A DNA stretch of 64,000 nucleotides. It comes from Chrysaora quinquecirrha (taxonomy: Eukaryota; Cnidaria; Scyphozoa; Semaeostomeae; Pelagiidae). The stretch is taken from positions 535,297 to 599,296 of the forward strand of contig JACTAT010000285.1 of assembly GCA_014526335.1 (NCBI GenBank), in the 5' to 3' direction. The notes below the pieces were generated by a model, which did no database searches, was not told the DNA's origin, and saw only the letters and a program-made list of their open reading frames with translations. Below, one piece after another: positions 13,619 to 62,880 of the stretch. The stretch's first letter is position 1; the number at the start of each line of letters is the position of its first letter. Both the position numbers and the translations under genes were made by a program.

Positions 13619-13660
13619 CTTGCTATTAGGACACTGTTTTGATATTTGTTCCAACCTCTT

Positions 13661-14445: not shown

Positions 14446-14579
14446 CATGCGATTGGTTTTTATATTTGATATTTCTTTTCTAAATTAATGCACATTTTTT
14501 TTTATATGCGAGTCTAATTTTCAAATTGTGCTTTTTCCTTTTTTATTTGTGTGCATTCTTTTTTAAACGTGTGTGACAT

Positions 14580-21470: not shown

Positions 21471-21542
21471 TACAAAACGTTCTCCCTGCTGATCACATGG
21501 TCAGAATCATTTCATGATCAAAAATAACATTATTCAACAATT

Positions 21543-26750: not shown

Positions 26751-27115
26751 AACATTAACAATGTAGAGCAATCTCGAATTTACGAAACTTTGACATTGAT
26801 GGGCTATTTAGGGAAATTTGCTTTATCATGTAATGAAGAATAAATAAAAATTTCAACGTTATTTTTGAAAAGTATTTTACAAACCTTTACAAATATATTG
26901 ACATCATGATTTACATACGGTATAAAGCTGTAGCTGTAGCAGAAATCGTATGAATCCTATGAATCGAATGAATTGCGGAGATGAATTCCGAAAAGGACTG
27001 GGCCTATTCTCAAGATATGGCGGGAAATTAAAATGACCATGACGACAATAAGCGAAGTGCTGCAGGTACTTTCAAAGTCTTGTCGTGAAATGTCAGATGC
27101 TTAAAATTTTTAGCA

Positions 27116-28952: not shown

Positions 28953-29079
28953 TTTGCAGAGCCTTTTCATTGCTTTGCTCCTACTAATAAAACAGCTTTT
29001 TTCAAAGCTACCACATTTCCCAACGAGTTAACCAAGTTGCTATGTTTGTCAGACCGAATTTGCTCTTAGCACTTGGAAT

Positions 29080-42131: not shown

Positions 42132-43346
42132 GTTTTCATTAGCCTTATCATATTTGTCCCTTCGAATTCAAGTTTAACGTTTCTCGGAGTACGTTTCCGA
42201 ATTTGGCAGAAGGAGTATTAAAGAATTGTTGTTTTAGATTATCATATTCTCTATTTTCTTTCAATTGTGGTTTGACATTTTCATCAAACGCTTTGCCGTT
42301 TTTAAGCCATATATATAAGCTGTCAGTGCCCATCTTGCAAAATTCGAACGAATTTGGCTCTAGAACTTCAACAAAAAAATCATAATAGCATTGAAGCATT
42401 CTTAGTTTTGCGTAGAATAAAACATTCCAAGTGATATAATGCGCTTCATTTTCATGTATTTTATTTTTTGGAGATATGGCTTCAATTATATTATCTTCAA
42501 GTAATTGTCCATTTAAGATTTGACCAATGTTTTTTTTCTAAACGGTCTTCCTTTCACTAGATAACTTACTTCTCTTTGTTTTGTTTTATTCATGATTGTA
42601 ATTCCAAAAGCCGAAATTCCAATTAACTTTTTTGAGTTTCAGCTCTGATAGAAGAAGATGGATCTTTATCTCCTCGCAGTCTATCTTTAGTGATGTTTTC
42701 CACAAAATCTTTGAAGATGATTTTACTTACTTTTGTACTGTATGAAACATTGTACTTTTGTAATTTTTTATCCATGGTCACGGTACCATTAAGCCAAAGC
42801 AGTGTTTAAACCAAAATATGAATTTATTAATAATCGCCTATCGGCAGTTGAGAACCCACAATCCGCAACCACTTGTTGCATATATTCTCTGATATCGTCG
42901 AATCGCACAGTTGCATTCTTCAATATTGGTGTAAACTCTTTGAATTTCTCTTTCAATTCTTGAATATCAACTTCAAGCGCGCCAAATACCCGCTCATTTC
43001 GTATATCATCAAATAACTGACGTAATGATATCTCACCTTTGTCACTATTATGTATTTTGTTTTGATCTATAAACATGCGTATTTCTTCACCAGCTTTGCT
43101 TTGGAGAAGTTTTTCCACTCACATTCTTTCATTTTTATAATCGTATATCTTCTGTTTTCAAAAAGTTGTCACGTGCTTGATCAAAGCTGCGTATCTCTTC
43201 AGCAGTTAATTTAGACTCCCCTTCAAAATGTGATGCCAAAGTTTTGATTATTTTATTATCAAGACATTCTTTACAAGCATGGTAATAGCAACCGTCAAAT
43301 TCGTAAACAATTCTGTTTACTTCATCGATCCCATCCACAAATATGT
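42132..43346 (-). pseudogene. DNA polymerase B (protein-primed type), N-terminally cut
   Basis: Blocks read on the minus strand: NRIVYEFDGCYYHAC (43290-43330), GALEVDIQELKEKFKEFTPI (about 42940-43000), DIREYM...GF...RRLLINSYFG (about 42800-42890), GDKDPSSSIRAE with ISAFG (palm motif B region, about 42590-42690), and YYDFFVEVLEP...MGTDSLYIWL (42310-42395). Motif C in this family is DTDS; here the first Asp reads Gly, removing a metal ligand. Several frameshifts. The left break at 42131 is the DDE transposon; the right break at 43346 is the junction with the Tc1-like block. Confidence 0.85.
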
Positions 43347-43434
43347 GATCAAGGATTTTCTGTACATTATTCAAAGATCACACCCCCTCCCCCCCTAATC
43401 AATGTTGTTTTCACTAAAAAGTAGTTAGTTTTGT
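43347..43434. repeat. 88 bp direct repeat, left copy
   Basis: Begins GATCAAGGATTTTCTG and ends GTAGTTAGTTTTGT; contains the C-rich inner arm of the block. Identical to 62669-62756. Confidence 0.97.
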
Positions 43435-43579
43435 TCTAGGAGCTCCACTGTTACTATTCCACAACATCGACTAAGGGGGGAGGGGGGCCTTTCAAATTTT
43501 TATCTCTCTAAACGTGAAATTTCATTTAGATAGCAAATTTACAGCACCAATCTCGTAGCCTTTTGCCCAGGATTGTCTC
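43347..43579. repeat. Tc1-type palindromic block A (left-truncated)
   Basis: Inner inverted pair: CCCCTCCCCCCCTAATC (about 43385) against CGACTAAGGGGGGAGGG (43469-43486). The right outer end is CCAGGATTGTCTC followed by TA. The matching left outer end (TA, then GAGACAATCCTGG) is present only in block B at 62639, so block A has lost about 30 bases on its left. Confidence 0.8.
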
Positions 43580-43775
43580 TATATGTGATATATTATTTGG
43601 GTAAAAAAGGCCATAAATGTGGTTAGAATATGCCCCCCTCGCTGTAATTCGGCAAAATTGTAGGAGAGTGAATTGAGAAAACCATATATGGAAATCGTTG
43701 GTATTGGGAAATATAATTTGACGTCAAATGTTAATAGAATGCAAAGAACTTCAGGAATGTTTATTCTGCAAAAAA

Positions 43776-44854
43776 ATGGTTCGACCAAGATGCATAAAAC
43801 CTGAAACGCGAGCTTTGTTTTCTTGCAACAAAATGAAAAAGTGGAAAACATTGGTAAAGAAACTGGAGTTTCAAGGGCACACATTTACAGAATAAGGAAG
43901 GAATCGTTTGAGGCAAGGACAGGAAATTATAAGGGAGGAAAAACAGGGGGAAGGCCATCCAAAATATCACATCGAATGAAGAGGAGGTTGCTTAGACTAA
44001 TAACAACAATACGAAAAGATAATCCCAATTGGACTGTTCAAAGGTTGATGGAGCGCGCAGATTTACGAAATGTGTCTAGAAGAACTGTTACAAGATTTCT
44101 AAATGCAAATGGGTTTAACTATTTACAGGCACGCAAGAAAGGACTCCAGACAGATACTGACAAAAAGAGACGTTTGAAATTCGCAAAAACCGTTAGCAGA
44201 GATCACAGTGAAGACTTTTGGCAATCGAGAATAGCTTTTTATTTAGATGCTGTCGGCTTTGTGTACAAAAGGAATCCTAAAGACCAAGCACTTGCTCCGT
44301 GTGGAAGAGTTTGGAGATCAAAAGCGGAGGGTTTGCTGCAAGGCTGCACTGCAAAAGGACAGGCATGCGGAACAGGGGGCTGCACCATGAAGTTTGTTGT
44401 TGCTATTAGCTTTGGGAAGGGGGTTATTTGCACAGAGTATTACGAAAAAATGAATGGAAAATACTTCTCAAACTTTTTGGACAGAAATTTTCAGTCATTA
44501 GTTGAAGCTTCTGGAAAGAATAGTCGCATGTGGATACAAGATGGAGACCCTTCACAAAATAGTGGTCAGGCAAAACAAGCTATGAAACGTGTAAACTCTG
44601 AACTCTTTCCGATTCCACCAAGAAGTCCAGACATAAATCCTATTGAGAATGTTTTTGCAATGGCGAAAAGAATACTCAAACAAGAAGCGATTGATTGTAA
44701 CATTTCCTATGAATCAAAGGAGCAATTTCAACAAAGAGTTGTGAATGTATTGAAATCTATTCCAGTTGAAAAAATCGATACAATAATTGAGTCAATGCCT
44801 AAACGAATGAAAATGATAATTTCCACCAAGGGGAACGAATTAAGTATTAAATGA
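43776..44854 (+). CDS. Tc1/mariner-like transposase (DD34E), nearly intact
   Basis: Cut-and-paste DDE transposase. ATG at 43776 gives MVRPRCIKPETRAL, followed by a one-base frame change near 43815; from 43823 the frame is open to 44854 (343 codons). Paired helix-turn-helix regions: GKETGVSRAHIYRIRKES, and NVSRRTVTRFLNANG after a GRPSK linker. Catalytic triad: AFYLDAVGF, WIQDGDPSQN and SPDINPIENVF, with 34 residues between the second Asp and Glu. Only the early frame change mars it, so it is young or recently active. It is a divergent relative of the transposase repeated at 47-60 kb. The next gene, Rep, is convergent, 670 bases away. Confidence 0.93.
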
Positions 44855-45100
44855 TTAACAGTCTTACCGTATAATGTAAAGTTTTAGTTACTGTAATGCA
44901 CCAACTTTAATCTTGATTGCCACCAGCAAGACATATACATATTTGTGCCACTATATTTTCTATGTGTTTTTAATTTCTAATTGTAATTGTGTATATGATA
45001 GGATGTACAGTATTGATTGCAACAATGTGTATGCTTGTATGACCAGCAATGGCTTGTTTTCGGAAACAATTTACCTTGCATAATAAACAGATTGTTAATC

Positions 45101-45327
45101 ACGGGTCTGCAATGAGCGCAACGAGTCAGCAAAACGGGTCAGCAATTTGCGATGTTGAAATGCTTTGCTATCAACGGGTCAGCACGAGTCAGCAACACTT
45201 TTTTATAAAATATATATATATATTTTAAAAAAGAAGTGCTGACCCGTGCTGACTCGCTGAGTCCAATAGGATTTTATATGTTTGAACTGCTGACCCGTTT
45301 GCTGACCCGTTGCTGACTCGTTGCTGA
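45101..45327. promoter_or_regulatory. Candidate replication origin: iterons around an AT palindrome
   Basis: Nine-base iterons RGTCAGCA with a preceding G: forward at 45103 (variant), 45123, 45136, 45176 and 45186; inverted (TGCTGACYC) at 45237, 45247, 45288, 45300 and 45311, plus a partial copy at 45322. The inner copies form the arms of a large palindrome whose centre is the AT-rich sequence at about 45200-45232. It lies between the transposase and Rep 3' ends, 200 bases from the Rep stop. Rep proteins of the CRESS group bind iterons beside a hairpin; the role here is inferred. Confidence 0.6.
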
Positions 45328-45526
45328 ATATTTTTATAAAGAGTAAATGTGCTCACTACCCATCAAGTACACATGTATAACATAACAAAATAGAGATTAC
45401 AATGAGCTGTCATAGCTAACTGACAGAAGGGGTCTTTTCATACTTATGTTAACTTTTTAAATGCAAACGTGAAAACAGGAAAATTAGAATGAATACAAAT
45501 GTACGATATTCAGTGTCATGATGAAA

Positions 45527-46362
45527 TTAAATGTCACGTCCCATCATGACTAATTCTGAAAAACATCTCTTGCATTTTGGTATGTCCTTTTGATCATATT
45601 CGGGTATTTGATGCCGAAATTCAAAAATTCGCCATCTTGCTTCCATCATCTCATTTTCTTTCTCATCTGTCGTGTTGTACTTTCCAATGTACCGAATGCG
45701 CTCTTTGCTTGTTGCCAAAATGGGTGTGTCCTTGTCAAAATAGATGTCTTGAGCATATGTTGATTTCGGTGCAGAAAAATGAAGTGGTTGGCCTTCTAGC
45801 AGTAGTAGCATGTCCTTCCATGCCAAGATCTCATTGCTATACCTAAAGTCGTTTAAGAAGATAATTTCTGCCTTTTCTGCCCCTATACAAGCGTAACTCG
45901 TGTTTGCAGGGTTAATGAACGTTATGAAGATATCATTCAAGGGGTTAAGCATAAACGTTTTCCCAGAGTTAGCTGGGCCAATTATCATCAAATTGCGATA
46001 TTTTCCACGTCCCTTCAACAACAGCTCTCTCAATGATACTGCGAATACAAAGACATTGATACTGTTATTTCTCAACACTTCCAATGCACAGGTTATCCAA
46101 TTCCTGTGGCAACCAAATGTACAATCCTGCTCCAGTTCCTTTTGTATCATTTCCATTCTTGTTGTCTTGCTCCTTTCGATAGCTTGAGGTGCATGCTCCA
46201 TTTTCCAAGCTGAGCTTAACAAGTCATTTAGACTTTTCTGCGACTTTCCAAGAATGAACATAGCCAGATCAGTTTTCCCTTCGTTTTTCTGCTCCTTAGC
46301 AAGTGCGTATAGTTCGTTGTCTACTTTTATGTTCTTCGCTACAATAAGCTCGGCAACATCTA
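45527..46362 (-). pseudogene. CRESS-type Rep, SF3 helicase half (gene split by array)
   Basis: Replication initiator helicase domain. Residue numbers refer to the frame that runs into the array: Walker A GPANSGKT (138-145), Walker B EIIFLNDF (165-172), motif C region PILATSKERIR (213-223) and a C-terminal Cys pair PKCKRCF (about 271-277). Motif C normally ends in Asn; here that position reads Lys. The open frame is uninterrupted, so the gene was intact when hit. The first nine codons of the frame belong to the inserted repeat. The nuclease half is at 61690-62211; reading phase on the two sides agrees if one TA is kept. Confidence 0.88.
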
Positions 46363-46647
46363 CAATGCCGGCCAGAATTTGTTGGAACACCCATCATATT
46401 TCCAGCCTTTTTCCCATGAAAGAGTGTTTACAATTCCAAGCACAAATCACGGACTCAATCCCCCCTCCCCCTGAAAACAATGTTGTTTTCTTATGTCGAA
46501 GGGTGCTACTGCGTGATGTGAATGTTGATATGCAGCTGAAAAGGTTTTATCATACAGTAAACCAACATTGTTTTCAGAGGGGGGAGGGGAGTTGTTACGT
46601 TGAGTAGAAAATTCAATCTAGCGTTCCAAGTAATCTGGCAGGCATTG
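46363..46647. repeat. Array block 1 (representative)
   Basis: Outer inverted ends CAATGCCGGCCAGAATTTG and CAAGTAATCTGGCAGGCATTG; inner inverted pair CCCCCTCCCCCTGAAAACAA and TTGTTTTCAGAGGGGGGAGG around about 85 bp of spacer. In internal copies the inverted symmetry continues about 40 bp into the core (TTCAGA before, TCTGAA after). Short frames here are repeat translation. Confidence 0.9.
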
Positions 46648-47176
46648 TCTGAAGTCTGAATTTCTTGTTTTTCGAGATATGAGAATGAAATTAAGCACCA
46701 AGAGTAAACTTGACACGCTTGTTTCAAAAATGACATCAGTTTTTATGTGGGTGGTTGTTGTGACGTCATAATTTGCCACTGAAGCCACGAGCGCATACAT
46801 CGGTGTGGACGGGCACGAAAAATATACAGAACGGTCTTGAAATAAGAAAGAGCTTGGGTATCGGCCTTCGGGAAGCCTATGTAGCTCTTTGCAATTGATA
46901 GCAAGTTGTCTACGCTTGTAGTTACCAGGTATTGACAAAGATATTAGGCTTCAAACGCGAAAATGTGTATTGCATGAAAACGAGGCTGTATTAAAGGCTC
47001 CTCGCTCGAGTTGAACAGTGAAGGTGAGGCTGCAAAGTTATAGAATGTGACGTTTAATAAGACATCCCCAAAAGACATTTTTACTGTTAACGAACTGAGA
47101 AATGAAATTTAGACTGTTTTCATATATGAGTCGAGGCGGTTGTTTTATGCTATCGTAGTATATATTGTCTTCTGCA

Positions 47177-48264
47177 ATGGTGTTCTACAAAAAATTTCAC
47201 CTGAAACTAGAGCTATGATCAAGTGTTTAAGAAAGCATGAATCAAAATCATATAGAGAAATAGCATCAGAGCTTGGAGTACCTGTGTCTTTAGTATACCG
47301 TGTCGCTACGAGCAGGCAAGAAGTAACGATATCTGAAAATAACGGCAAGAGAGGCAGGAAAAGAATATTAAGCGCTAGAGATACCAGCCATATAATTCGA
47401 GAATTTTGAAAATGAGAGCCGAGAATCCCAACGTATCTGTCAAAGACATAATGCGTTCGTTGAAAATGTCAAATGTCAGTTATAGAACGGTTGTGCGGGT
47501 ACTCAATGACGCTGGCTATAAACGTTTACAGCCGAGGACGGAAAGGTATTCTATCAGAAAAAGACAAATCTCTCCGGAGGAAATATTCTATCGAGAAGCT
47601 GAAGAATTACAACCAACAGTTCTGGAACGAAGAAATTCTGTTGTATTTAGATGCGGTGTCTTTTGTACACAAAAACAACCCACATAGAGAAAGCTTAAGG
47701 CCGAAAGCGAGAATTCTCAGAAAGCCAAACGAAGGGCTAATTGTCACAGCCAAGGGCTCCAAAGACTTGGCAGGGGGGAGACGACTTCACCTCCTTGTTG
47801 CCATTTCGTATGGAAGGGGGGTTGTTCTTATAGAGGAGTATGAGAAGATGACGGGACAGTATTTTGCTGGTTTCATTCGCAATACCCTTGGACCAGCTTT
47901 ACATGAATTAAGTGACAGTAACGACGCAACTAAAGACAGACTGTTTGTAATGGACAATGATCCTTCGCAAACAAGCAAAGCTGCGATGGAAGCCCTAAGT
48001 GATATACAGGCAACATTCATCAAAATACCACCCCGCTCTCCAGATTTAAATCCTATCGAAAATGTCTTCAACAATGTCAAAAGAGAGCTTGACAGGCAAG
48101 CCCTTGAACAAAAAATAGTTCGAGAAGATTTCCATACATTCAAATCCCGCGTGAAGGAGACGCTAAGGAAACTCGACATTGAGCTCATAAACAAGACGAT
48201 AGGAACAATGACGAAAAGACTTTTGGAAATTCACCGTACTAAGGGAAATAGAACGAGATACTGA
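47177..48264 (+). pseudogene. Tc1-like transposase, array copy 1
   Basis: DD34E transposase of about 360 codons. Motifs: SPETRAMIKCLRKHESKSYR (first helix-turn-helix), KRGRKRILSARDTSH, LLYLDAVSFVH, FVMDNDPSQTS and SPDLNPIENVF. Broken by a short A-run after the ATG (47177), a missing T at about 47405, and an extra G at about 47537 (GAGGACGG). The C-terminal two-thirds, including all three catalytic residues, stay open to 48264. Confidence 0.9.
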
Positions 48265-49936
48265 TAATTGTCTTAGAATTAAATTGTAACACATGGATGT
48301 TAATGTACAGTAACATATTCTTGTAAAAATCATGCAAACAAATACTGAATCAGACGTTTCCTAAACTGTTCTATTTTGATTACATTTCAATCGCGTGCTG
48401 TGTTCTCATTCAATCACTTCTGCATAGCATGATAAACTGATTGCTGTCTTCAGTGCTACTGTACTGAAATTCAAGTGTCAAAGAATCTCCAACGGTTTGC
48501 ACCTCTATTTCGAGTTTCATCTCCCTCGTACATACTCCTATTTTAATGAATTATTATAATAGAAACACTGAGGGGTGTAAAGGAGATGTTCTCGAAATTA
48601 AGTAATTTTATTTGTAGATATGTAACTCCATTGCGCTGTAAATTGCAAAAAGGATGACTGCTCGATTAAAAGAATAGATTAGACTATAGTCATATCATAT
48701 TTTATTCTAGCAGCTTTCTGGGCAAAACTTCCCAAAATCATTCTCTAACCATTGAACTCAGAGAGTTGCAAGTTTAGGAAACAAATCTGATCCTACATGT
48801 ACACCTATACATGGAAAGAAAATGAACAAAAACAAGACGAAGAATTGATTTTCCTTTTCTAAAGTACAAAATTTAGGTGCAAACCGTTGACTTCAGTTCA
48901 ACATTCAATTCAATTCAATTGGCTACTTTCGGGTTCATAAGCATTCATAAGCTGTATCACAAGTGAATCAATATGTTTTATTCCGAAAAAAGATACGAAT
49001 ATGGTATCACACATTATCGACATGTTCAAGACGAACATATTCCTCTTAATTATCTCTGAGAATCATTTTTCATTCATTGAAAATAACATTGTCATCTTTA
49101 GAATAAAATTCAAACACTAGTTCCCAGACCCTATGGCAACTCTGTTCTTTGGCTACATTGATACTGTGTATAAAGGTCTTATTTCATTTATCCATATATA
49201 TAATAAGGTATTACAGAGATTGTTTCAACATATGCAAGTAGAAAAATGTCATTTAATCTTTGTCTGCTAGCAGATGCCTTGCTTCATGTCAGCGTATCCA
49301 TTTAACTCCCCTATCTATGAATTGTGACGTCATTAGATATACCTACTGATGTTCTAGAGCAAAATTATTGCCATATCCGAATTCTCCGCCCAAAAATACC
49401 CCTAAATGCAATGTTTCAACCACATATGATCAAAAATACGATTTTCAGCTTTCAGAAAATGCCGGCCAGAATTTGTTGGAACACCCATCATATTTCCAGC
49501 CTTTTTCCCATGAAAGAGTGTTTACAATTCCAAGCACAAATCACGGACTCAATCCCCCCTCCCCCTGAAAACAATGTTGTTTTCTTATGTCGAAGGGTGC
49601 TACTGCGTGATGTGAATGTTGATATGCAGCTGAAAAGGTTTTATCATACAGTAAACCAACATTGTTTTCAGAGGGGGGAGGGGAGTTGTTACGTTGAGTA
49701 GAAAATTCAATCTAGCGTTCCAAGTAATCTGGCAGGCATTGTCTGAAGTCTGAATTTCTTGTTTTCGAGATATGAGAATGAAATTAAGCACCAAGAGTAA
49801 ACTTGACACGTTTAATAAGAAGTTTTACCGAAAGACAGTTTTACTGTTAACGAGCTGAGAAATGAAATTTAGACTGTTTTCATATACGAGTCGAGGCGGT
49901 TGTTTTATGCTATCGTAATACATATTGTCTTCTGCA

Positions 49937-50941
49937 ATGGTGTTCTACAAAAAATTTCACCTGAAACTAGAGCTATGATCAAGTGTTTAAGAAAGCATGG
50001 ATCGAAATCATATAGAGAAATAGCATCAGAGCTTGGACTACCTGTGTCCTCGGTCTACCGTGTCGCTACGAGCAGGCAAGAAGTAACAATACCTAAAAAT
50101 AACGGCAAGAGGGGCAGGAAAAGAATATTAAGCGCTAGAGATACCAGCCATATAATTCGGGAATTTTTGAAAATGAGAGCCGAGAATCCCAACGTATCTG
50201 TTAAAGACATAATGCGTTCGTTGAAAATGTCAAATGTCAGTTATAGAACGGTTGTGAGGGTACTCAATGACGCTGGCTATAAACGTTTACAGCCGAGACG
50301 GAAAGGTATTCTATCAGAAAAAGACAAATCTCTGCGGAGGAAATATTCTATCCAAAAGCTGAAGAATTACAACCAACAGTTCTGGAACGAAGAAATTCTG
50401 TTGTATTTAGATGCGGTATCTTTTGTACACAAAAACAACCCACATATAGAAAGCTTAAGGCCGAAAGCGAGAATTCTCAGAAAGCCAAACGAAGAGCTAA
50501 TTGTCACAGCCAAGGGCTCCAAAGATTTGGCAGGGGGGGACGACTTCACCTCCTTGTTGTCATTTCGTATGGAAGGGGGGTTGTTCTTATAGAGGAATAT
50601 GAGAAGATGACGGGACAGTATTTTGCTGGTTTCATTCGCAATACCCTTGGACCAGCTTTACATGAATTAAGTGACAATAACTACGCAACTAAAGGCAGAC
50701 TGTTTGTAATGGACTATGATCCTTCGCAGACAAGCAAACAAAGCTGCGATGGAAGCCCTTAGTAATAAACAGGCAACAATCATCAAAATACCACCCCGCT
50801 CTCCAGATTTACATCCTATCGAAAATGTCTTCAATAATGTCAAAAGAGAGCTTGACAGGCAAGCCCTTGAACAAAAAATATTTCGAGAGGATTTCCATAT
50901 TGGAAATTCACCGTACTAAGGGAAATAGAACGAGATACTGA
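49937..50941 (+). pseudogene. Tc1-like transposase, array copy 2 (most divergent)
   Basis: Reads through the site where the other copies carry an extra G (GAGACGG at about 50297), giving an open frame from both DNA-binding regions to LLYLDAVSFVH and beyond. It then breaks in the G-run near 50540. Two deletions: about 330 bp upstream of the gene (near 49810) and about 85 bp near the 3' end (50897). The second Asp motif reads MDYDPSQ. Represents the older sequence state for the G site. Confidence 0.88.
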
Positions 50942-52946
50942 TAATTGTCTTAGAATTAAATTGTAACACATGGATGTTAATGTACAGTAACATATTCTTG
51001 TAAAAATCATGCAAACAAATACTGAATCAGACGTTTCCTAAACTGTTCTATTTTGATTACATTTCAATCGCGTGCTGTGTTCTCATTCAATCACTTCTGC
51101 ATAGCATGATAAACTGATTGCTGTCTTCAGTGCTACTGTACTGAAATTCAAGTGTCAAAGAATCTCCAACGGTTTGCACCCTCTATTTCGAGTTTCATCT
51201 CCCTCGTACATACTCCTATTTTAATGAATTATTATAATAGAAACACTGAGGGGTGTAAAGGAGATGTTCTCGAAATTAAGTAATTTTATTTGTAGATATG
51301 TAACTCCATTGCGCTGTAAATTGCAAAAAGGATGACTGCTCGATTAAAAGAATAGATTAGACTATAGTCATATCATATTTTATTCTAGCAGCTTTCTGGG
51401 CAAAACTTCCCAAAATCATTCTCTAACCATTGAACTCAGAGAGTTGCAAGTTTAGGAAACAAATCTGATCCTACATGTACACCTATACATGGAAAGAAAA
51501 TGAACAAAAAACAAGACGAAGAATTGATTTTCCTTTTCTAAAGTACAAAATTTAGGTGCAAACCGTTGACTTCAGTTCAACATTCAATTCAATTCAATTG
51601 GCTACTTTCGGGTTCATAAGCATTCATAAGCTGTATCACAAGTGAATCAATATGTTTTATTCCGAAAAAAGATACGAATATGGTATCACACATTATCGAC
51701 ATGTTCAAGACGAACATATTCCTCTTAATTATCTCTGAGAATCATTTTTCATTCATTGAAAATAACATTGTCATCTTTAGAATAAAAATTCAAACACTAG
51801 TTCCCAGACCCCTATGGCAACTCTGTTCTTTGGCTACATTGATACTGTGTATAAAGGTCTTATTTCATTTATCCATATATATAATAAGGTATTACAGAGA
51901 TTGTTTCAACATATGCAAGTAGAAAAATGTCATTTAATCTTTGTCTGCTAGCAGATGCCTTGCTTCATGTCAGCGTATCCATTTAACTCCCCTATCTATG
52001 AATTGTGACGTCATTAGATATACCTACTGATGTTCTAGAGCAAAATTATTGCCATATCCGAATTCTCCGCCCAAAAATACCCCTAAATGCAATGTTTCAA
52101 CCACATATGATCAAAAATACGATTTTCAGCTTTCAGAAAATGCCGGCCAGAATTTGTTGGAACACCCATCATATTTCCAGCCTTTTTCCCATGAAAGAGT
52201 GTTTACAATTCCAAGCACAAATCACGGACTCAATCCCCCTCCCCTGAAAACAATGTTGTTTTCTTATGTCAAAGGGTGCTACTGCGTGATGTGAATGTTG
52301 ATATGCAGCTGAAAAGGTTTTATCATACAGTAAACCAACATTGTTTTCAGAGGGGAGAGGGGAGTTGTTACGTTGAGTAGAAAATTCAATCTAGCGTTCC
52401 AAGTAATCTGGCAGGCATTGTCTGAAGTCTGAATTTCTTGTTTTTCAAGATATGAGAATGAAATTAAGCACCAAGAGTAAAATTGACACGCTTGTTTCAA
52501 AAATGACATCAGTTTTATGTGGGTGGTTGTTGTGACGTCATAACTTGCCACTGAAGCCACGAGCGCATACATCGGTGTGGACGGGCACGAAAAATATACA
52601 GAACGGTCTTGAAATAAGAAAGAGCTTGGGTATCGGCCTTCGGAAGCCTATGTAGCTCTTTGCAATTGATAGCAAGTTGTCTATGCTTGTAGTTACCAGG
52701 TATTGACAAAGATATTAGGCTTCAAACGCGAAAATGTGTATTGCATGAAAACGAGGCTGTATTAAAGGCTCCTCGCTCGAGTTGAACAGTGAAGGTGAGG
52801 CTGCAAAGTTATAGAATGTGACGTTTTATAAGACATCCCGAAAGACATTTTTACTGTTAACGAACTGAGAAATGAAATTTAGACTGTTTTCATATATGAG
52901 TCGAGGCGGTTGTTTTATGCTATCGTAGTATATATTGTCTTCTGCA

Positions 52947-54034
52947 ATGGTGTTCTACAAAAAAATTTCACCTGAAACTAGAGCTATGATCAAGTGTTTA
53001 AGAAAGCATGAATCAAAATCATATAGAGAAATAGCATCAGAGCTTGGAGTACCTGTGTCTTTAGTATACCGTGTCGCTACGAGCAGGCAAGAAGTAACGA
53101 TATCTGAAAATAACGGCAAGAGAGGCAGGAAAAGAATATTAAGCGCTAGAGATACCAGCCATATAATTCGAGAATTTTTGAAAATGAGAGCCGAGAATCC
53201 CAACGTATCTGTCAAAGACATAATGCGTTCGTTGAAAATGTCAAATGTCAGTTATAGAACGGTTGTGCGGGTACTCAATGACGCTGGCTATAAACGTTTA
53301 CAGCCGAGGACGGAAAGGTATTCTATCAGAAAAAGACAAATCTCTCCGGAGGAAATATTCTATCGAGAAGCTGAAGAATTACAACCAACAATTCTGGAAC
53401 GAAGAAATTTTGTTGTATTTAGATGCGGTGTCTTTTGTACAAAAAAACAACCCACATAGAGAAAGCTTAAGGCCGAAAGCGAGAATTCTCAGAAAGCCAA
53501 ACGAAGGGCTAATTGTCACAGCCAAGGGCTCCAAAGACTTGGCAGGGGGGAGACGACTTCACCTCCTTGTTGCCATTTCGTATGGAAGGGGGGTTGTTCT
53601 TATAGAGGAGTGTGAGAAGATGACGGGACCGTATTTTGCTGGTTTCATTTGCAATACCCTTGGACCAGCTTTACATGAATTAAGTGACAGTAACGACGCA
53701 ACTAAAGACAGACTGTTTTGAATGGACAATGATCCTTCGCAAACAAGCAAAGCTGCGATGGAAGCCCTAAGTGATATACAGGCAACATTCATCAAAATAC
53801 CATCCCGCTCTCCAGATTTAAATCCTATCGAAAATGTCTTCAACAATGTCAAAGAGAGCTTGACAGGCAAGCCCTTGAACAAAAATAGTTCGAGAAGATT
53901 TCCATACATTCAAATCCAGCGTGAAGGAGACGCTAAGGAAACTCGACATTGAGCTCATAAACAAGACGATAGGAACAATGACGAAAAGACTTTTGGAAAT
54001 TCACCGTACTAAGGGAAATAGAACGAGATACTGA
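52947..54034 (+). pseudogene. Tc1-like transposase, array copy 3
   Basis: The only copy whose ATG (52947) is in frame with the first helix-turn-helix (MVFYKKISPETRAM), thanks to a longer A-run. Then the shared extra G at about 53309. A TGA replaces the codon before MDNDPSQ (about 53718), shared with copies 4 and 5. A lost A at about 53852 shifts the last part. Confidence 0.88.
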
Positions 54035-56043
54035 TAATTGTCTTAGAATTAAATTGTAACACATGGATGTTAATGTACAGTAACATATTCTTGTAAAAAT
54101 CATGCAAACAAATACTGAATCAGACGTTTCCTAAACTGTTCTATTTTGATTACATTTCAATCGCGTGCTGTGTTCTCATTCAATCACTTCTGCATAGCAT
54201 GATAAACTGATTGCTGTCTTCAGTGCTACTGTACTGAAATTCAAGTGTCAAAGAATCTCCAACGGTTTGCACCCTCTATTTCGAGTTTCATCTCCCTCGT
54301 ACATACTCCTATTTTAATGAATTATTATAATAGAAACACTGAGGGGTGTAAAGGGAGATGTTCTCGAAATTAAGTAATTTTATTTGTAGATATGTAACTC
54401 CATTGCGCTGTAAATTGCAAAAAAGGATGACTGCTCGATTAAAAGAATAGATTAGACTATAGTCATATCATATTTTATTCTAGCAGCTTTCTGGGCAAAA
54501 CTTCCCAAAATCATTCTCTAACCATTGAACTCAGAGAGTTGCAAGTTTAGGAAACAAATCTGATGCTACATGTACACCTATACATGGAAAGAAAATGAAC
54601 AAAAAACAAGACGAAGAATTGATTTTCCTTTTCTAAAGTACAAAATTTAGGTGCAAACCGTTGACTTCAGTTCAACATTCAATTCAATTCAATTGGCTAC
54701 TTTCGGGTTCATAAGCATTCATAAGCTGTATCACAAGTGAATCAATATGTTTTATTCCGAAAAAAGATACGAATATGGTATCACACATTATCGACATGTT
54801 CAAGACGAACATATTCCTCTTAATTATCTCTGAGAATCATTTTTCATTCATTGAAAATAACATTGTCATCTTTAGAATAAAAATTCAAACACTAGTTCCC
54901 AGACCCCTATGGCAACTCTGTTCTTTGGCTACATTGATACTGTGTATAAAGGTCTTATTTCATTTATCCATATATATAATAAGGTATTACAGAGATTGTT
55001 TCAACATATGCAAGTAGAAAAATGTCATTAAATCTTTGTCTGCTAGCAGATGCCTTGCTTCATGTCAGCGTATCCATTTAACTCCCTATCTATGAATTGT
55101 GACGTCATTAGATATACCTACTGATGTTCTAGAGCAAAATTATTGCCATATCCGAATTCTCCGCTCAAAATACCCCTAAATGCAATGTTTCAACCACATA
55201 TGATCAAAATACGATTTTCAGCTTTCAGACAATGCCGGCCAGAATTTGTTGGAACACCCATCATATTTCCAGCCTTTTTCCCATGAAAGAGTGTTTACAA
55301 TTCCAAGCACAAATCACGGACTCAATCCCCCTTCCCCCTGAAAACAATGTTGTTTTCTTATGTCGAAGGGTGCTACTGCGTGATGTGAATGTTGATATGC
55401 AGCTGAAAAGGTTTTATCATACAGTAAACCAACATTGTTTTCAGAGGGGGGAGGGGAGTTGTTACGTTGAGTAGAAAATTCAATCTAGCGTTCCAAGTAA
55501 TCTGGCAGGCATTGTCTGAAGTCTGAATTTCTTGTTTTTCAAGATATGAGAATGAAATTAAGCACCAAGAGTAAAATTGACACGCTTGTTTCAAAAATGA
55601 CATCAGTTTTTATGTGGGTGGTTGTTGTGACGTCATAACTTGCCACTGAAGCCACGAGCGCATACATCGGTGTGGACGGGCACGAAAAATATACAGAACG
55701 GTCTTGAAATAAGAAAGAGCTTGGGTATCGGCCTTCGGGAAGCCTATGTAGCTCTTTGCAATTGATAGCAAGTTGTCTACGCTTGTAGTTACCAGGTATT
55801 GACAAAGATATTAGGCTTCAAACGCGAAAATGTGTATTGCATGAAAACGAGGCTGTATTAAAGGCTCCTCGCTCGAGTTGAACAGTGAAGGTGAGGCTGC
55901 AAAGTTATAGAATGTGACGTTTTATAAGACATCCCCGAAAGACATTTTTACTGTTAACGAACTGAGAAATGAAATTTAGACTGTTTTCATATATGAGTCG
56001 AGGCGGTTGTTTTATGCTATCGTAGTATATATTGTCTTCTGCA

Positions 56044-57122
56044 ATGGTGTTCTACAAAAATTTCACCTGAAACTAGAGCTATGATCAAGTGTTTAAGAAA
56101 GCATGAATCAAAATCATATAGAGAAATAGCATCAGAGCTTGGAGTACCTGTGTCTTTAGTATACCGTGTCGCTACGAGCAGGCAAGAAGTAACGATATCT
56201 GAAAATAACGGCAAGAGAGGCAGGAAAAGAATATTAAGCGCTAGAGATACCAGCCATATAATTCGAGAATTTTGAAAATGAGAGCCGAGAATCCCAACGT
56301 ATCTGTCAAAGACATAATGCGTTCGTTGAAAATGTCAAATGTCAGTTATAGAACGGTTGTGCGGGTACTCAATGACGCTGGCTATAAACGTTTACAGCCG
56401 AGGACGGAAAGGTATTCTATCAGAAAAGACAAATCTCTCCGGAGGAAATATTCTATCGAGAAGCTGAAGAATTACAACCAACAATTCTGGAACGAAGAAA
56501 TTTTGTTGTATTTAGATGCGGTGTCTTTGTACAAAAAACAACCCACATAGAGAAAGCTTAAGGCCGAAAGCGAGAATTCTCAGAAAGCCAAACGAAGGGC
56601 TAATTGTCACAGCCAAGGGCTCCAAAGACTTGGCAGGGGAGACGACTTCACCTCCTTGTTGCCATTTCGTATGGAAGGGGTTGTTCTTATAGAGGAGTGT
56701 GAGAAGATGACGGGACCGTATTTTGCTGGTTTCATTTGCAATACCCTTGGACCAGCTTTACATGAATTAAGTGACAGTAACGACGCAACTAAAGACAGAC
56801 TGTTTTGAATGGACAATGATCCTTCGCAAACAAGCAAAGCTGGGATGGAAGCCCTAAGTGATATACAGGCAACATTCATCAAAATACCATCCCGCTCTCC
56901 AGATTTAAATCCTATCGAAAATGTCTTCAACAATGTCAAAAGAGAGCTTGACAGGCAAGCCCTTGAACAAAAATAGTTCGAGAAGATTTCCATACATTCA
57001 AATCCCGCGTGAAGGAGACGCTAAGGAAACTCGACATTGAGCTCATAAACAAGACGATAGGAACAATGACGAAAAGACTTTTGGAAATTCACCGTACTAA
57101 GGGAAATAGAACGAGATACTGA
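56044..57122 (+). pseudogene. Tc1-like transposase, array copy 4
   Basis: As copy 3 (extra G, TGA before MDNDPSQ), but many homopolymers are one or two bases shorter than in all other copies: A-run after the ATG, T-run at 56272, A-run at 56424, G-runs at 56637 and 56678. The pattern suggests consensus error. TAG near 56974 follows another lost A. Confidence 0.88.
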
Positions 57123-59119
57123 TAATTGTCTTAGAATTAAATTGTAACACATGGATGTTAATGTACAGTAACATATTCTTGTAAAAATCATGCAAACAAA
57201 TACTGAATCAGACGTTTCCTAAACTGTTCTATTTTGATTACATTTCAATCGCGTGCTGTGTTCTCATTCAATCACTTCCGCATAGCATGATAAACTGATT
57301 GCTGTCTTCAGTGCTACTGTACTGAAATTCAAGTGTCAAAGAATCTCCAACGGTTTGCACCTCTATTTCGAGTTTCATCTCCCTCGTACATACTCCTATT
57401 TTAATGAATTATTATAATAGAAACACTGAGGGGTGTACAGGAGATGTTCTCGAAATTAAGTAATTTTATTTGTAGATATGTAACTCCATTGCGCTGTAAA
57501 TTGCAAAAGGATGACTGCTCGATTAAAAGAATTGATTAGACTATAGTCATATCATATTTTATTCTAGCAGCTTTCTGGGCAAAACTTCCCAAAATCATTC
57601 TCTAACCATTGAACTCAGAGAGTTGCAAGTTTAGGAAACAAATCTGATGCTACATGTACACCTATACATGGAAAGAAAATGAACAAAAAACAAGACGAAG
57701 AATTGATTTTCCTTTTCTAAAGTACAAAATTTAGGTGCAAACCGTTGACTTCAGTTCAACATTCAATTCAATTCAATTGGCTACTTTCGGGTTCATAAGC
57801 ATTCATAAGCTGTATCACAAGTGAATCAATATGTTTTATTCCGAAAAAGATACGAATGTGGTATCACACATTATCGACATGTTCAAGACGAACATATTCC
57901 TCTTAATTATCTCTGAGAATCATTTTCATTCATTGAAAATAACATTGTCATCTTTAGAATAAAAATTCAAACACTAGTTCCCAGACCCCTATGGCAACTC
58001 TGTTCTTTGGCTACATTGATACTGTGTATAAAGGTCTTATTTCATTTATCCATATATATAATAAGGTATTACAGAGATTGTTTCAACATATGCAAGTAGA
58101 AAAATGTCATTAAATCTTTGTCTGCTAGCAGATGCCTTGCTTCATGTCAGCGTATCCATTTAACTCCCCTATCTATGAATTGTGACGTCATTAGATATAC
58201 CTACTGATGTTCTAGAGCAAAATTATTGCCATATCCGAATTCTCCGCTCAAAAATACCCCTAAATGCAATGTTTCAACCACATATGATCAAAAATACGAT
58301 TTTCAGCTTTCAGACAATGCCGGCCAGAATTTGTTGGAACACCCATCATATTTCCAGCCTTTTTCCCATGAAAGAGTGTTTACAATTCCAAGCACAAATC
58401 ACGGACTCAATCCCCTCCCCTGAAAACAATGTTGTTTTCTTATGTCGAAGGTGCTACTGCGTGATGTGAATGTTGATATGCAGCTGAAAAGGTTTTATCA
58501 TACAGTAAACCAACATTGTTTTCAGAGGGGAGGGAGTTGTTACGTTGAGTAGAAAATTCAATCTAGCGTTCCAAGTAATCTGGCAGGCATTGTCTGAAGT
58601 CTGAATTTCTTGTTTTCAAGATATGAGAATGAAATTAAGCACCAAGAGTAAAATTGACACGCTTGTTTCAAAAATGACATCAGTTTTATGTGGGTGGTTG
58701 TTGTGACGTCATAACTTGCCACTGAAGCCACGAGCGCATACATCGGTGTGGACGGGCACGAAAAATATACAGAACGGTCTTGAAATAAGAAAGAGCTTGG
58801 GTATCGGCCTTCGGGAAGCCTATGTAGCTCTTTGCAATTGATAGCAAGTTGTCTACGCTTGTAGTTACCAGGTATTGACAAAGATATTAGGCTTCAAACG
58901 CGAAAATGTGTATTGCATGAAAACGAGGCTGTATTAAAGGCTCCTCGCTCGAGTTGAACAGTGAAGGTGAGGCTGCAAAGTTATAGAATGTGACGTTTTA
59001 TAAGACATCCCCGAAAGACATTTTTACTGTTAACGAACTGAGAAATGAAATTTAGACTGTTTTCATATATGAGTCGAGGCGGTTGTTTTATGCTATCGTA
59101 GTATATATTGTCTTCTGCA

Positions 59120-60206
59120 ATGGTGTTCTACAAAAAATTTCACCTGAAACTAGAGCTATGATCAAGTGTTTAAGAAAGCATGAATCAAAATCATATAGAG
59201 AAATAGCATCAGAGCTTGGAGTACCTGTGTCTTTAGTATACCGTGTCGCCACGAGCAGGCAAGAAGTAACGATATCTGAAAATAACGGCAAGAGAGGCAG
59301 GAAAAGAATATTAAGCGCTAGAGATACCAGCCATATAATTCGAGAATTTTTGAAAATGAGAGCCGAGAATCCCAACGTATCTGTCAAAGACATAATGCGT
59401 TCGTTGAAAATGTCAAATGTCAGTTATAGAACGGTTGTGCGGGTACTCAATGACGCTGGCTATAAACGTTTACAGCCGAGGACGGAAAGGTATTCTATCA
59501 GAAAAAGACAAATCTCTCCGGAGGAAATATTCTATCGAGAAGCTGAAGAATTACAACCAACAATTCTGGAACGAAGAAATTTTGTTGTATTTAGATGCGG
59601 TGTCTTTTGTACAAAAAACAACCCACATAGAGAAAGCTTAAGGCGAAAGCGAGAATTCTCAGAAAGCCAAACGAAGGGCTAATTGTCACAGCCAAGGGCT
59701 CCAAAGACTTGGCAGGGGGGAGACGACTTCACCTCCTTGTTGCCATTTCGTATGGAAGGGGGGTTGTTCTTATAGAGGAGTGTGAGAAGATGACGGGACC
59801 GTATTTTGCTGGTTTCATTTGCAATACCCTTGGACCAGCTTTACATGAATTAAGTGACAGTAACGACGCAACTAAAGACAGACTGTTTTGAATGGACAAT
59901 GATCCTTCGCAAACAAGCAAAGCTGCGATGGAAGCCCTAAGTGATATACAGGCAACATTCATCAAAATACCATCCCGCTCTCCAGATTTAAATCCTATCG
60001 AAAATGTCTTCAACAATGTCAAAAGAGAGCTTGACAGGCAAGCCCTTGAACAAAAAATAGTTCGAGAAGATTTCCATACATTCAAATCCCGCGTGAAGGA
60101 GACGCTAAGGAAACTCGACATTGAGCTCATAAACAAGACGATAGGAACAATGACGAAAAGACTTTTGGAAATTCACCGTACTAAGGGAAATAGAACGAGA
60201 TACTGA
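59120..60206 (+). pseudogene. Tc1-like transposase, array copy 5
   Basis: Shares the extra G and the TGA before MDNDPSQ with copies 3 and 4. Lost a G near 59643. From 59892 the frame with MDNDPSQTS and SPDLNPIENVF is open to 60206; note S in place of P in the IPSRSPD segment, as in copies 3 and 4. Confidence 0.88.
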
Positions 60207-61689
60207 TAATTGTCTTAGAATTAAATTGTAACACATGGATGTTAATGTACAGTAACATATTCTTGTAAAAATCATGCAAACAAATACTGAATCAGACGTT
60301 TCCTAAACTGTTCTATTTTGATTACATTTCAATCGCGTGCTGTGTTCTCATTCAATCACTTCCGCATAGCATGATAAACTGATTGCTGTCTTCAGTGCTA
60401 CTGTACTGAAATTCAAGTGTCAAAGAATCTCCAACGGTTTGCACCCTCTATTTCGAGTTTCATCTCCCTCGTACATACTCCTATTTTAATGAATTATTAT
60501 AATAGAAACACTGAGGGGTGTACAGGGAGATGTTCTCGAAATTAAGTAATTTTATTTGTAGATATGTAACTCCATTGCGCTGTAAATTGCAAAAAAGGAT
60601 GACTGCTCGATTAAAAGAATAGATTAGACTATAGTCATATCATATTTTATTCTAGCAGCTTTCTGGGCAAAACTTCCCAAAATCATTCTCTAACCATTGA
60701 ACTCAGAGAGTTGCAAGTTTAGGAAACAAATCTGATGCTACATGTACACCTATACATGGAAAGAAAATGAACAAAAAACAAGACGAAGAATTGATTTTCC
60801 TTTTCTAAAGTACAAAATTTAGGTGCAAACCGTTGACTTCAGTTCAACATTCAATTCAATTCAATTGGCTACTTTCGGGTTCATAAGCATTCATAAGCTG
60901 TATCACAAGTGAATCAATATGTTTTATTCCGAAAAAAGATACGAATATGGTATCACACATTATCGACATGTTCAAGACGAACATATTCCTCTTAATTATC
61001 TCTGAGAATCATTTTTCATTCATTGAAAATAACATTGTCATCTTTAGAATAAAAATTCAAACACTAGTTCCCAGACCCCTATGGCAACTCTGTTCTTTGG
61101 CTACATTGATACTGTGTATAAAGGTCTTATTTCATTTATCCATATATATAATAAGGTATTACAGAGATTGTTTCAACATATGCAAGTAGAAAAATGTCAT
61201 TTAATCTTTGTCTGCTAGCAGATGCCTTGCTTCATGTCAGCGTATCCATTTAACTCCCCTATCTATGAATTGTGACTTCATAAGATATACCTACTGATGT
61301 TCTAGAGCAAAATTATTGCCATATCCGAATTCTCCGCCCAAAAATACCCCTAAATGCAATGTTTCAACCACATATGATCAAAAATACGATTTTCAGCTTT
61401 CAGACAATGCCGGCCAGAATTTGTTGGAACACCAATCATATTTCCAGCCTTTTTCCCATGAAAGAGTGTTTACAATTCCAAGCACAAATCACGGACTCAA
61501 TCCCCCCTCCCCCTGAAAACAATGTTGTTTTCTTATGTCGAAGGGTGCTACTGCGTGATGTGAATGTTGATATGCAGCTGAAAAGGTTTTATCATACAGT
61601 AAACCAACATTGTTTTCAGAGGGGGGAGGGGAGTTGTTACGTTGAGTAGAAAATTCAATCTAGCGTTCCAAGTAATCTGGCAGGCATTG

Positions 61690-62211
61690 TAGGTTTGACA
61701 ATCTTCGGCTTTTATTCCCCTTCGACAAATCTTGCTTTTTGTCTATTTTACCGGCATTGAAGTCGTTGGATTTTCTCTTGCGAGACTTGCTTGCCTTTGA
61801 TGTCTTTGGAGATGTTGCGTTCGAAAGATCTTTGTGTCCTTCGCTGTGAAGTACATTGCTATCCTCCTTTGTGATGTATTTGTAGGCGCTATAATAATCA
61901 TGATGGTCATCATTATCAGAAACATGCACCGAGATCCCATCGTTTTTCTGTAAGTAGCATTTCGCTGGCAACCAGCCCCTGTTGCCACTAAACTTTATTG
62001 TCATATGATAGTGTTTCTCTCCATTATGATGCTCCTTTTTACAGCATGCCCACTGTACAATGGTGGCTTTCGATTTTCCTTCTGAAAAAGCCTTTACAAC
62101 GGCCTCTGCAAAATGACGACGAGTAGGAAACTTTTGCAAGTCCGCTTTACTGTAAGTCACAAGATAAGTTTTTTTCGTTACTCTGTTGTTTAGCTCACTC
62201 CCAGAATCCAT
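61690..62211 (-). pseudogene. CRESS-type Rep, HUH endonuclease half (gene split by array)
   Basis: ATG at 62211. Rolling-circle initiator nuclease motifs: motif 1 TYLVTYSKADL (residues 15-25), motif 2 HYHMTIKF (67-74, the HUH pair), motif 3 YITK (112-115, catalytic Tyr and Lys), with VQWACC before motif 2. After the domain comes a Lys/Ser-rich linker (residues 130-170), then the gene is cut by the array at the TA. Family knowledge: CRESS Reps nick an origin loop and the helicase half unwinds DNA. The arrangement nuclease-linker-SF3 over about 450 codons fits. Confidence 0.88.
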
Positions 62212-62638
62212 TTCAATGTAGCTATTTGCTAAAATGTGCTCACAAGGGTTTTGATTTTAGCTTTAACCGATTGTGATGCCGTAATGTTAGCCTACCGAAT
62301 TAGCCTTGTTGTTGATACTTGTTTCCGTTATTATGGAGATGACAAGCTTAGATTTATTTAAAACTTCTTGTTTCCCGTTTCGTAACAGTAACTGTGACGA
62401 GCGGAATTCGTAAATTAAACTTCTTACGTTACCGATCTTGCCAACTGGCGTGGGTCTGTGTACCTTAGTAGGCAAATAAGGTGACGAATTATTCCCAAAG
62501 GCACGTTGTTTTCACAAAACTATGCTAGACTTATATTAAGATAAGCAATTCGTTACAATAATTGTTATTTCCGAGTACAGAATCGCAGATTCCTTACTTT
62601 AGTACAGACAGGAATGTCATCCATCCTGTATCTAAATA
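62212..62638. other. Rep upstream region
   Basis: No gene. Should contain the Rep promoter, but no clear TATA box was picked out. Ends at the TA before block B. Confidence 0.5.
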
Positions 62639-62756
62639 GAGACAATCCTGGACAATAGTTAGGAGACCGATCAAGGATTTTCTGTACATTATTCAAAGAT
62701 CACACCCCCTCCCCCCCTAATCAATGTTGTTTTCACTAAAAAGTAGTTAGTTTTGT
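62639..62756. repeat. Tc1-type palindromic block B (right-truncated)
   Basis: Left outer end GAGACAATCCTGGACAA after TA (62637-62638), inverse of CCAGGATTGTCTC in block A. The last 88 bases (62669-62756) repeat 43347-43434 exactly. The G-rich inner arm and right outer end are missing. Confidence 0.85.
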
Positions 62757-62880
62757 CAAAGATCGTGGAAATGAGACTGGATAGGACACTCTGGGGAGAA
62801 CAAAAGACTATGTTAAGCATCACTGATTTTCCAAGTTTGTAGGGAATGATCATTTCCGGCCTACTGCAGCGCGCTTTGAT

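What the first reader, a model, noticed from the sequence alone, without database searches (positions are those of the whole stretch)
43347..62756. A Tc1/mariner transposase and a CRESS-type Rep may form one mobile unit
Two copies of the same Tc1-type terminal block enclose both genes, and no other end for the transposase element is found between 44854 and the Rep gene. By analogy with the 2.8 kb cores of the array (block-core-block), this unit would be a block-core-block whose core also carries a HUH/SF3 Rep. A DDE transposon fused with a rolling-circle replicon would parallel other virus-transposon mergers, and I know of no description of it.
Basis: partly seen in the sequence, partly recalled or inferred. 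Interest (0 to 1): 0.88.

Follow-up and report, generated by a model that had tools for sequence, protein, structure and literature searches.

The report
Jumping gene with its own replicase
The genome around this window holds many copies of a roughly 4-kb jumping gene that carries both a Tc1/mariner cutting-and-pasting enzyme and a virus-like rolling-circle replication protein, so the pair in the window is one mobile unit and not a chance neighbourhood.

Summary
Confirmed and extended. Its Tc1 transposase (43823-44854) and HUH/SF3 Rep belong to one element. Here Rep is split (N 61690-62211, C 45527-46362) by a Rep-less five-unit Tc1 array inserted at a TA. On 11 of 11 contigs fetched for Rep hits, Rep and transposase lie convergently; an iteron palindrome lies between them in 11 of 11 units tested. 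Units are single or head-to-tail, 3.5-4.7 kb. Canonical form: TA|block-core-block|TA, with ~255-bp direct-repeat blocks, each ending in inverted CAATC...GATTG. Rep and transposase divergences correlate (Mantel r 0.90). The window copy is truncated at both outer blocks, so 43347 and 62756 are not true ends. Rep-deleted derivatives exist. Inferred mechanism: DDE cut-and-paste at TA, plus Rep-driven copying of a block+core circle. The second step is unproven; the Rep-less array shows arrays can form without Rep in cis. Closest known: KolobokP (same architecture, other proteins) and a truffle Rep+transposase element. Ten searches of the held library found no description of this combination.

The parts
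43347..43575 (+). left terminal block, lacking its first 26 nt; 43347-43434 is the 88-bp direct repeat; inner end GATTG|TCT at 43575/43576
   Evidence: full block of the same family
43823..44854 (+). Tc1-type DD34E transposase; the first ~16 residues of relatives lie in another frame just upstream
   Evidence: Pfam DDE_3 and HTH_Tnp_Tc3_2; 34 residues between second D and E; relatives start 16 aa earlier
45100..45323 (.). iteron palindrome: nine ACG(A/G)GTC(A/T)GCA words on both arms, candidate replication origin; these words occur nowhere else in the window
   Evidence: (fold z -12)
45527..46362 (-). Rep, C-terminal piece: SF3 helicase
   Evidence: model pLDDT 91.5 with E1/AAV Rep40 fold matches
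46361..46362 (.). TA target copy, left of the array
46363..61689 (+). nested tandem array of a related Rep-less Tc1 element, block-(core-block)x5, interrupting Rep
   Evidence: broken transposase ORFs
46363..46647 (+). array block 1 (others 49457-49741, 52138-52420, 55230-55514, 58315-58592, 61405-61689)
61690..61691 (.). TA target copy, right of the array
61690..62211 (-). Rep, N-terminal piece: HUH endonuclease
   Evidence: model pLDDT 86.6 with gemini-/circo-/vientovirus Rep fold matches
62643..62756 (+). right terminal block, lacking its last ~141 nt; 62669-62756 is the 88-bp direct repeat; inner end AGA|CAATC at 62642/62643

Best explanation
The unit is one transposon lineage that joins a Tc1/mariner DD34E transposase with a CRESS-type Rep (HUH endonuclease plus SF3 helicase) and the Rep's probable origin, an iteron palindrome between the two convergent genes. 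The integrated form is TA|block-core-block|TA. The blocks are ~255-bp direct repeats, and each carries Tc1-like inverted ends. SHOWN: gene order, architecture, TA at most outer ends, AGA/TCT at nearly all inner junctions, tandem arrays, joint divergence of both proteins, low dN/dS, and a Rep-less derivative with clean TA flanks. INFERRED: (1) the transposase cuts and pastes at ends flanked by TA; inner block ends, flanked by AGA/TCT, are spared, so block-core-block moves as a unit. (2) Recombination between blocks releases a ~4-kb block+core circle. (3) Rep nicks the iteron palindrome and copies that circle by rolling circle. (4) Circles or multimers re-enter at existing blocks, making or lengthening arrays. 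In this window a Rep-less relative has inserted as an array into the Rep gene, so this copy's Rep is interrupted.
For: One unit: 11 of 11 contigs, fetched on the strength of Rep hits alone, have convergent Rep and transposase; with close pairs merged, and C138 counted with the window, these are about eight deep lineages. Genome-wide, 61 of 122 listed transposase places have a convergent Rep N-piece 0.5-3.5 kb downstream (41 of 73 transposase loci); all 98 Rep-transposase pairs in that range are on opposite strands: 63 convergent, 35 divergent (read as the next unit across a block), 0 same strand (both lists truncated). Co-divergence: Mantel r 0.90, none of 20000 permutations as high, 12 lineages (some proteins partial); r 0.82, p 0.004 for eight deep lineages. 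dN/dS 0.22-0.39 in close pairs, three for Rep and two for transposase. Origin: iteron palindrome in 11 of 11 units (window and 10 contigs), z -9.9 to -24.7 for the best 240-nt window, iteron word family-specific; iteron distance follows Rep distance (r 0.66, p 0.0003; deep lineages only r 0.43, p 0.048; words picked by eye). Ends: TA at 8 of 10 left and 8 of 9 right outer ends. Fold matches to CRESS Reps and E1/AAV helicases. In databases both proteins show a separate contig-length peak at 3.5-4.5 kb and share five lengths of 3 kb or more against 1.07 on average in shifted lists (0.63% of 796 shifts reach five); their distances agree (r 0.83, p 0.0014).
Against: No circle, no junction read and no nicking data. 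No TAxTATTAC nonanucleotide (motif recalled) in the outer unit. The window's own five-unit array lacks Rep and these iterons, and the core stretch examined (48265-49462) has no iteron-like repeat family, so arrays do not need Rep in cis; unequal crossing-over between blocks could explain them. A Rep-deleted copy has clean TA flanks, so Rep is not needed for insertion. 50 of 122 transposase places have no listed Rep within 6 kb (truncated lists, and the window itself counts among them), so some lineages may live without Rep. 91 of 150 listed Rep places have no listed convergent transposase; some of these do have one in the fetched sequence (C185, C424), the rest were not checked. Outer flanks that are not TA: C327 TT, C2 AA (left), C286 TG (right). 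Inner junctions that are not TCT: C439 TTT, C192 TCG. Fold z-scores are somewhat inflated because the lowest-energy window was picked first. Pfam matches of the window's Rep pieces are at or below the curated cut-offs.
Confidence: 0.78

Rival explanations
1. One unit, but Rep plays no part in amplification: arrays and circles come from unequal crossing-over between the direct-repeat blocks (as proposed for KolobokP multimers), and Rep does something else, such as aiding excision repair or timing transposition to replication.
For: A Rep-less relative forms the five-unit array in this very window; KolobokP makes the same multimers with a His-Me nuclease and no Rep named (PMC9587614); block-to-block recombination needs no element protein.
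Against: Rep has low dN/dS and its iteron palindrome is kept and co-diverges with it, which argues for origin use.
Confidence: 0.22
2. Mainly an extrachromosomal replicon (a capsid-less CRESS-like plasmid) that acquired a Tc1 transposase as an integrase; chromosomal copies are side products.
For: Rep fold is CRESS type; Rep and transposase contigs in databases show a peak at 3.5-4.5 kb, the size of block+core.
Against: Inserted copies are many and, where ends were resolved, in the transposon form with two blocks and mostly TA flanks; no Rep relative found in IMG/VR, plasmid or phage collections with the patterns and searches used; ~4-kb contigs may be collapsed genomic repeats.
Confidence: 0.12
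3. Chance or local nesting: a Tc1 element next to an endogenous Rep gene, with the 88-bp repeats arising by later rearrangement.
For: The window copy alone is truncated at both ends and lacks TA at 43347/62756.
Against: The same order recurs on 11 of 11 fetched contigs with deep, correlated divergence.
Confidence: 0.02

Closest known systems
KolobokP (Kojima and Bao 2022, PMC9587614; abstract, passages and section 7 read)
   Same: Internal region between two long terminal direct repeats, each with its own short inverted ends; single copies and (repeat-internal)n-repeat multimers.
   Different: Kolobok transposase and a His-Me nuclease, repeats of about 450 or 660 bp and target duplications of 3-5 bp; here Tc1 DD34E transposase, Rep, iteron palindrome, ~255-bp repeats and TA. 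Solo blocks could not be counted here because the DNA searches did not complete.
Geminivirus-like transposon of Tuber melanosporum (Liu et al. 2011, PMC3198968; abstract, passages and section 3 part 3 read)
   Same: Rep-like gene and transposase genes in one repeated element.
   Different: Fungus; 37-bp inverted ends with no obvious target duplication; two damaged transposase ORFs of unstated type; no direct-repeat blocks, iteron palindrome or arrays reported in the text read.
CRESS-DNA virus Rep proteins (geminivirus, circovirus, vientovirus)
   Same: HUH endonuclease fold plus SF3 helicase.
   Different: No capsid-sized third ORF, no nonanucleotide found in the window's unit; helicase sequence nearest to papillomavirus E1 / parvovirus NS1 models.
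Tc1/mariner elements
   Same: DD34E transposase, inverted ends, TA target.
   Different: Direct-repeat blocks with ends at both sides of each, and a second gene (Rep) with its own candidate origin.
Parvovirus-like elements DENSOV_HM and PIVE (in PMC3198968)
   Same: Multi-copy NS1/E1-like helicase genes in animal genomes.
   Different: No transposase reported in the text read; could not be compared by sequence here.

Membership tests
Tc1/mariner (DD34E) | DDE_3 domain with DD34E spacing and Tc-type helix-turn-helix | tested here: met
Tc1/mariner (DD34E) | insertion at TA with inverted ends | tested here: met
   8 of 10 left and 8 of 9 right outer ends have TA; inverted CAATC/GATTG ends. Not at the window copy's own truncated ends.
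Tc1/mariner (DD34E) | transposition activity | not testable with these tools
   no bench data
CRESS-type Rep | HUH motif, YxxK motif and Rep endonuclease fold | tested here: met
   invariant H67, H69, Y112 and nearly invariant K115 in 32 sequences; fold; Pfam matches of the N piece itself are weak (E 0.022 and 0.11)
CRESS-type Rep | SF3 helicase domain | tested here: met
CRESS-DNA virus | nonanucleotide stem-loop TAxTATTAC (recalled) | tested here: not met
   none in the outer unit of the window; other copies not scanned
CRESS-DNA virus | capsid gene | tested here: not met
   apart from Rep and transposase frames, ORFs of at most 202 aa, mostly antisense to those genes, in eight units; these small ORFs were not searched
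KolobokP | internal region between long terminal direct repeats with own inverted ends; multimers | tested here: met
KolobokP | Kolobok transposase and non-TA target duplication | tested here: not met
   Tc1 domains and TA flanks
KolobokP | His-Me finger nuclease | tested here: inconclusive
   no third large ORF; no profile search of small ORFs
Helitron | Rep fused to a SF1 helicase, no DDE transposase (recalled) | tested here: not met
   SF3 helicase and DDE transposase present
Tuber-type Rep transposon | Rep and transposase in one repeated element | tested here: met
   relatedness of the proteins was not tested

The most novel reading that the evidence does not exclude
A widespread class of animal transposons with two engines: a Tc1/mariner transposase that inserts direct-repeat-bounded DNA at TA, and a captured rolling-circle replicase with its own co-evolving iteron origin that multiplies the excised circle and builds head-to-tail arrays. 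The AGA versus TA flank would tell inner from outer ends, so that monomers and multimers move intact.
Probability: 0.5. Interest if true: 0.92.

Novelty: new variant of a known kind. Interest (0 to 1): 0.85.

Why it matters
Cut-and-paste DNA transposons generally have no replication machinery of their own (general knowledge). An element that pairs a Tc1 transposase with a virus-type replicase and origin would show how such an element can copy itself and build arrays, and would be a living link between ssDNA replicons and transposons in animals. The prediction is directly testable: ~4-kb circles with a single block flanked by AGA and TCT, and nicking at the iteron palindrome. The family may also matter for annotation, since uncharacterised Rep-like genes in cnidarian genomes (names) may be transposon genes.

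Tried and rejected
Chance neighbourhood: rejected. Rep as a separate endogenous viral gene: rejected for the same reason. 43347/62756 as true ends: rejected by full blocks. Arrays as proof of rolling-circle replication: rejected, because the window array has no Rep and none of these iterons. A resemblance of the left flank to type-B DNA polymerase was from memory and not supported by Pfam. Rep and transposase relatives sought in IMG/VR and GTDB genomes, and Rep relatives in plasmids and phages: none found. The left-flank ORF had no match in phages. DNA searches for solo blocks in the own genome did not complete, so solo blocks are untested.

Numbers to read with care: shared contig lengths pair proteins by equal longest-contig length, not by contig name; one of the five is a 1.69-Mb contig that could hold both by chance; the three protein searches listed 120 of 284, 344 and 881 hits. 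Lists are truncated (150 of 326 and 118 of 578 candidates scored). For the outer-flank counts I dropped C459 (boundary unclear), C185 and C424 (blocks not resolved), the right ends of C138 (truncated) and C327 (unresolved), the left end of C368 (unresolved) and the window's outer copy (truncated). In one search some proteins are partial ORFs. The dN/dS of C2 against C368 rests on very few changes (dS 0.012-0.022). One search failed part-way and was redone.
Full report
What was checked. The finding says that a Tc1/mariner transposase and a CRESS-type Rep lie between two copies of one terminal block and may be one mobile unit. The 88-bp blocks at 43347-43434 and 62669-62756 are identical. [quoted passage not shown] its first ~16 residues lie in another frame. 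No other block end was found between it and the Rep.

The Rep is one gene in two pieces. The C piece (45527-46362, minus) is an SF3 helicase and the N piece (61690-62211, minus) an HUH endonuclease. Searched apart, both match 109 of the 120 Rep relatives in hand, and in the cleanest of the 25 rows printed the two matches meet at the same residue. Between them lies a 15.3-kb tandem array of a related element, block-(core-block)x5, bounded by TA on both sides: 285-bp blocks (two are 283 and 278 bp) and cores of 2.8 kb (one of 2.4 kb), with broken transposase frames and no Rep match; the window's iteron words do not occur in it, and the one core stretch examined has no iteron-like repeat family. 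The array is therefore a nested insertion into the Rep gene.

Structure models of the pieces are confident (pLDDT 86.6 and 91.5). The N piece matches geminivirus, vientovirus and circovirus Rep endonuclease domains (seven matches with E up to 0.001, best 1.9e-5; viral models). The C piece matches papillomavirus E1 and AAV Rep helicases (83 matches with E up to 0.001). Sequence profiles are weaker: the window pieces only reach or fall below the Pfam cut-offs, and of 30 aligned members 17 match PPV_E1_C, 14 Parvo_NS1 and 14 REP_ORF2-G2P at E up to 0.01. HUH and YxxK residues are conserved in 32 sequences.

Other copies. The window is G000:C285:535297-599296 of a 328-Mb genome. The Rep N piece has 150 scored places of 326 candidates, often evenly spaced by 3.5-4.7 kb. 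I fetched 20 stretches around Rep hits on 11 contigs. On all 11, Rep and transposase are present and convergent. Irregularities: one C368 unit has ~2.7 kb extra between the genes, the last C368 transposase has no Rep, the fourth C2 unit is scrambled, and the C138 copies (86-94% identical to the window's proteins) are interrupted. The transposase search lists 122 places. Of these, 61 have a convergent Rep N-piece 0.5-3.5 kb downstream, in 41 of 73 transposase loci; of the 98 pairs in that range 63 are convergent, 35 divergent (read as neighbouring units) and none on the same strand. 50 of 122 have no listed Rep within 6 kb, and 91 of 150 Rep places have no listed convergent transposase. Both lists are truncated and some of these do have the partner in fetched DNA (C185, C424), but true single-gene copies exist.

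Architecture. Four single copies have direct repeats of ~254 bp at both ends (98.8, 99.6, 97.6 and 80.6% identical; start-to-start 3992, 3980, 3937 and 5012 bp, the last with an inner insertion). Each block has inverted ends CAATC...GATTG (GAGTG in C2). Outer ends are flanked by TA in 8 of 10 left and 8 of 9 right cases (exceptions C327 TT, C2 AA, C286 TG). Inner junctions read AGA|CAATC in all cases read (first base of the block A instead of C in two array blocks), and GATTG|TCT in all but C439 (TTT) and C192 (TCG). Arrays follow block-(core-block)n, for example C190 with four units and TA at both ends. Of 11 blocks read, 10 hold a C-rich run, 7 a G-rich run and all 11 a CAATGTT- or AACATTG-type word, possibly further transposase sites (inference). 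The window's outer copy fits this plan but is truncated in both outer blocks, so its true ends and target site are gone.

Origin. Between the 3' ends of the two genes lies a long palindrome of short repeated words: in the window nine ACG(A/G)GTC(A/T)GCA words at 45100-45323, folding energy z -12. The same kind of palindrome with a family-specific word is present in 11 of 11 units tested (the window and one unit from each of 10 contigs; C138 not in that test), z -9.9 to -24.7 (30 shuffles each, best window picked first, so somewhat inflated). Word distance follows Rep distance (r 0.66, p 0.0003; deep lineages only r 0.43, p 0.048; words chosen by eye). That is what a replicase and its binding site would do. 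No CRESS nonanucleotide was found in the window's unit.

One evolving unit. Distances of Rep and transposase correlate across 12 lineages of this genome (r 0.90, none of 20000 permutations as high; eight deep lineages r 0.82, p 0.004). dN/dS is 0.30-0.39 for Rep (three close pairs) and 0.22-0.29 for transposase (two close pairs); in distant pairs synonymous change is saturated. In a database of 5.8 billion proteins, relatives of both show a separate contig-length peak at 3.5-4.5 kb beside one of short contigs, and share five contig lengths of at least 3 kb where shifted lists share 1.07 on average; on those, with the window, distances again agree (r 0.83, p 0.0014). That pairing rests on equal lengths and is indirect. 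Named sources include Paramuricea clavata, Acropora millepora and Rhopilema esculentum. The host of the window itself is not named; that it is an animal is an inference.

How it may work. Shown: the anatomy. Inferred: the transposase cuts at TA-flanked outer ends and inserts at TA. A Rep-deleted copy at C285:520148-522154 with clean TA flanks and only ~34 bp of right end supports movement without Rep. Blocks can recombine to give a ~4-kb circle; Rep can copy it from the iteron palindrome; re-entry at blocks would make arrays. Against this last part, the window's array has no Rep and none of these iterons, so arrays can form by recombination alone. I put about 0.95 on 'one mobile unit' and about 0.6 on Rep-driven copying.

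Known relatives. KolobokP has the same block-core-block and multimer plan with other proteins, and its authors called its terminal direct repeats unlike any other DNA transposon (PMC9587614; abstract, passages, section 7). A truffle element holds Rep and transposase genes with 37-bp inverted ends (PMC3198968; abstract, passages, section 3 part 3). PMC6668415 was read in passages only; the Rep transposons it names in those passages are IS200/IS605, IS91 and Helitrons. Ten searches of the held library listed no paper whose title or abstract start describes a Tc1/mariner element with Rep; preprints and most subscription papers are not in it. I file it as a new variant of a known kind: a Tc1/mariner lineage with a captured replicase and KolobokP-like architecture.

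Noticed in passing
window 25688-30659: An ORF with a DDE_Tnp_1_7 transposase domain (27753-28952) sits between two tandem arrays of a 143-149-bp unit in opposite orientation, as if arrays formed very long inverted ends.
   Followed up: no
window 9344-14438: Two arrays of one 20-bp unit in opposite orientation (9344-9486 and 14298-14438) flank a stretch with a 389-aa ORF without Pfam match in DNA of about 19% GC.
   Followed up: no
window 3858-23424: Long degenerate arrays of a GTTA/TTAG-like 4-bp word with strong G over C skew, up to 2 kb each.
   Followed up: no
window 62827-64000: A THAP-domain exon starts ~70 bp right of the right block, seemingly (by eye) followed by an intron and a further open frame.
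   Followed up: partly
window 40115-43377: Open minus-strand pieces end near the left block, one running 31 bp into it; a likeness to type-B DNA polymerase is recalled only and Pfam does not support it.
   Followed up: partly
window 296-1537: Reverse transcriptase ORF (RVT_1, E 1.5e-27).
   Followed up: no
L023 (C138) near 131022 and window 43347: Two copies of this family are truncated on the transposase side within about 6 bp of the same place in the block, next to unrelated flanks; cause unknown.
   Followed up: partly
G000:C387:1836405-1841887, C387:1704046-1707189, C489:14398-20120: Clusters of transposase fragments spaced ~2.2-2.4 kb with no listed Rep within 6 kb, perhaps Rep-less arrays of this family.
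   Followed up: no
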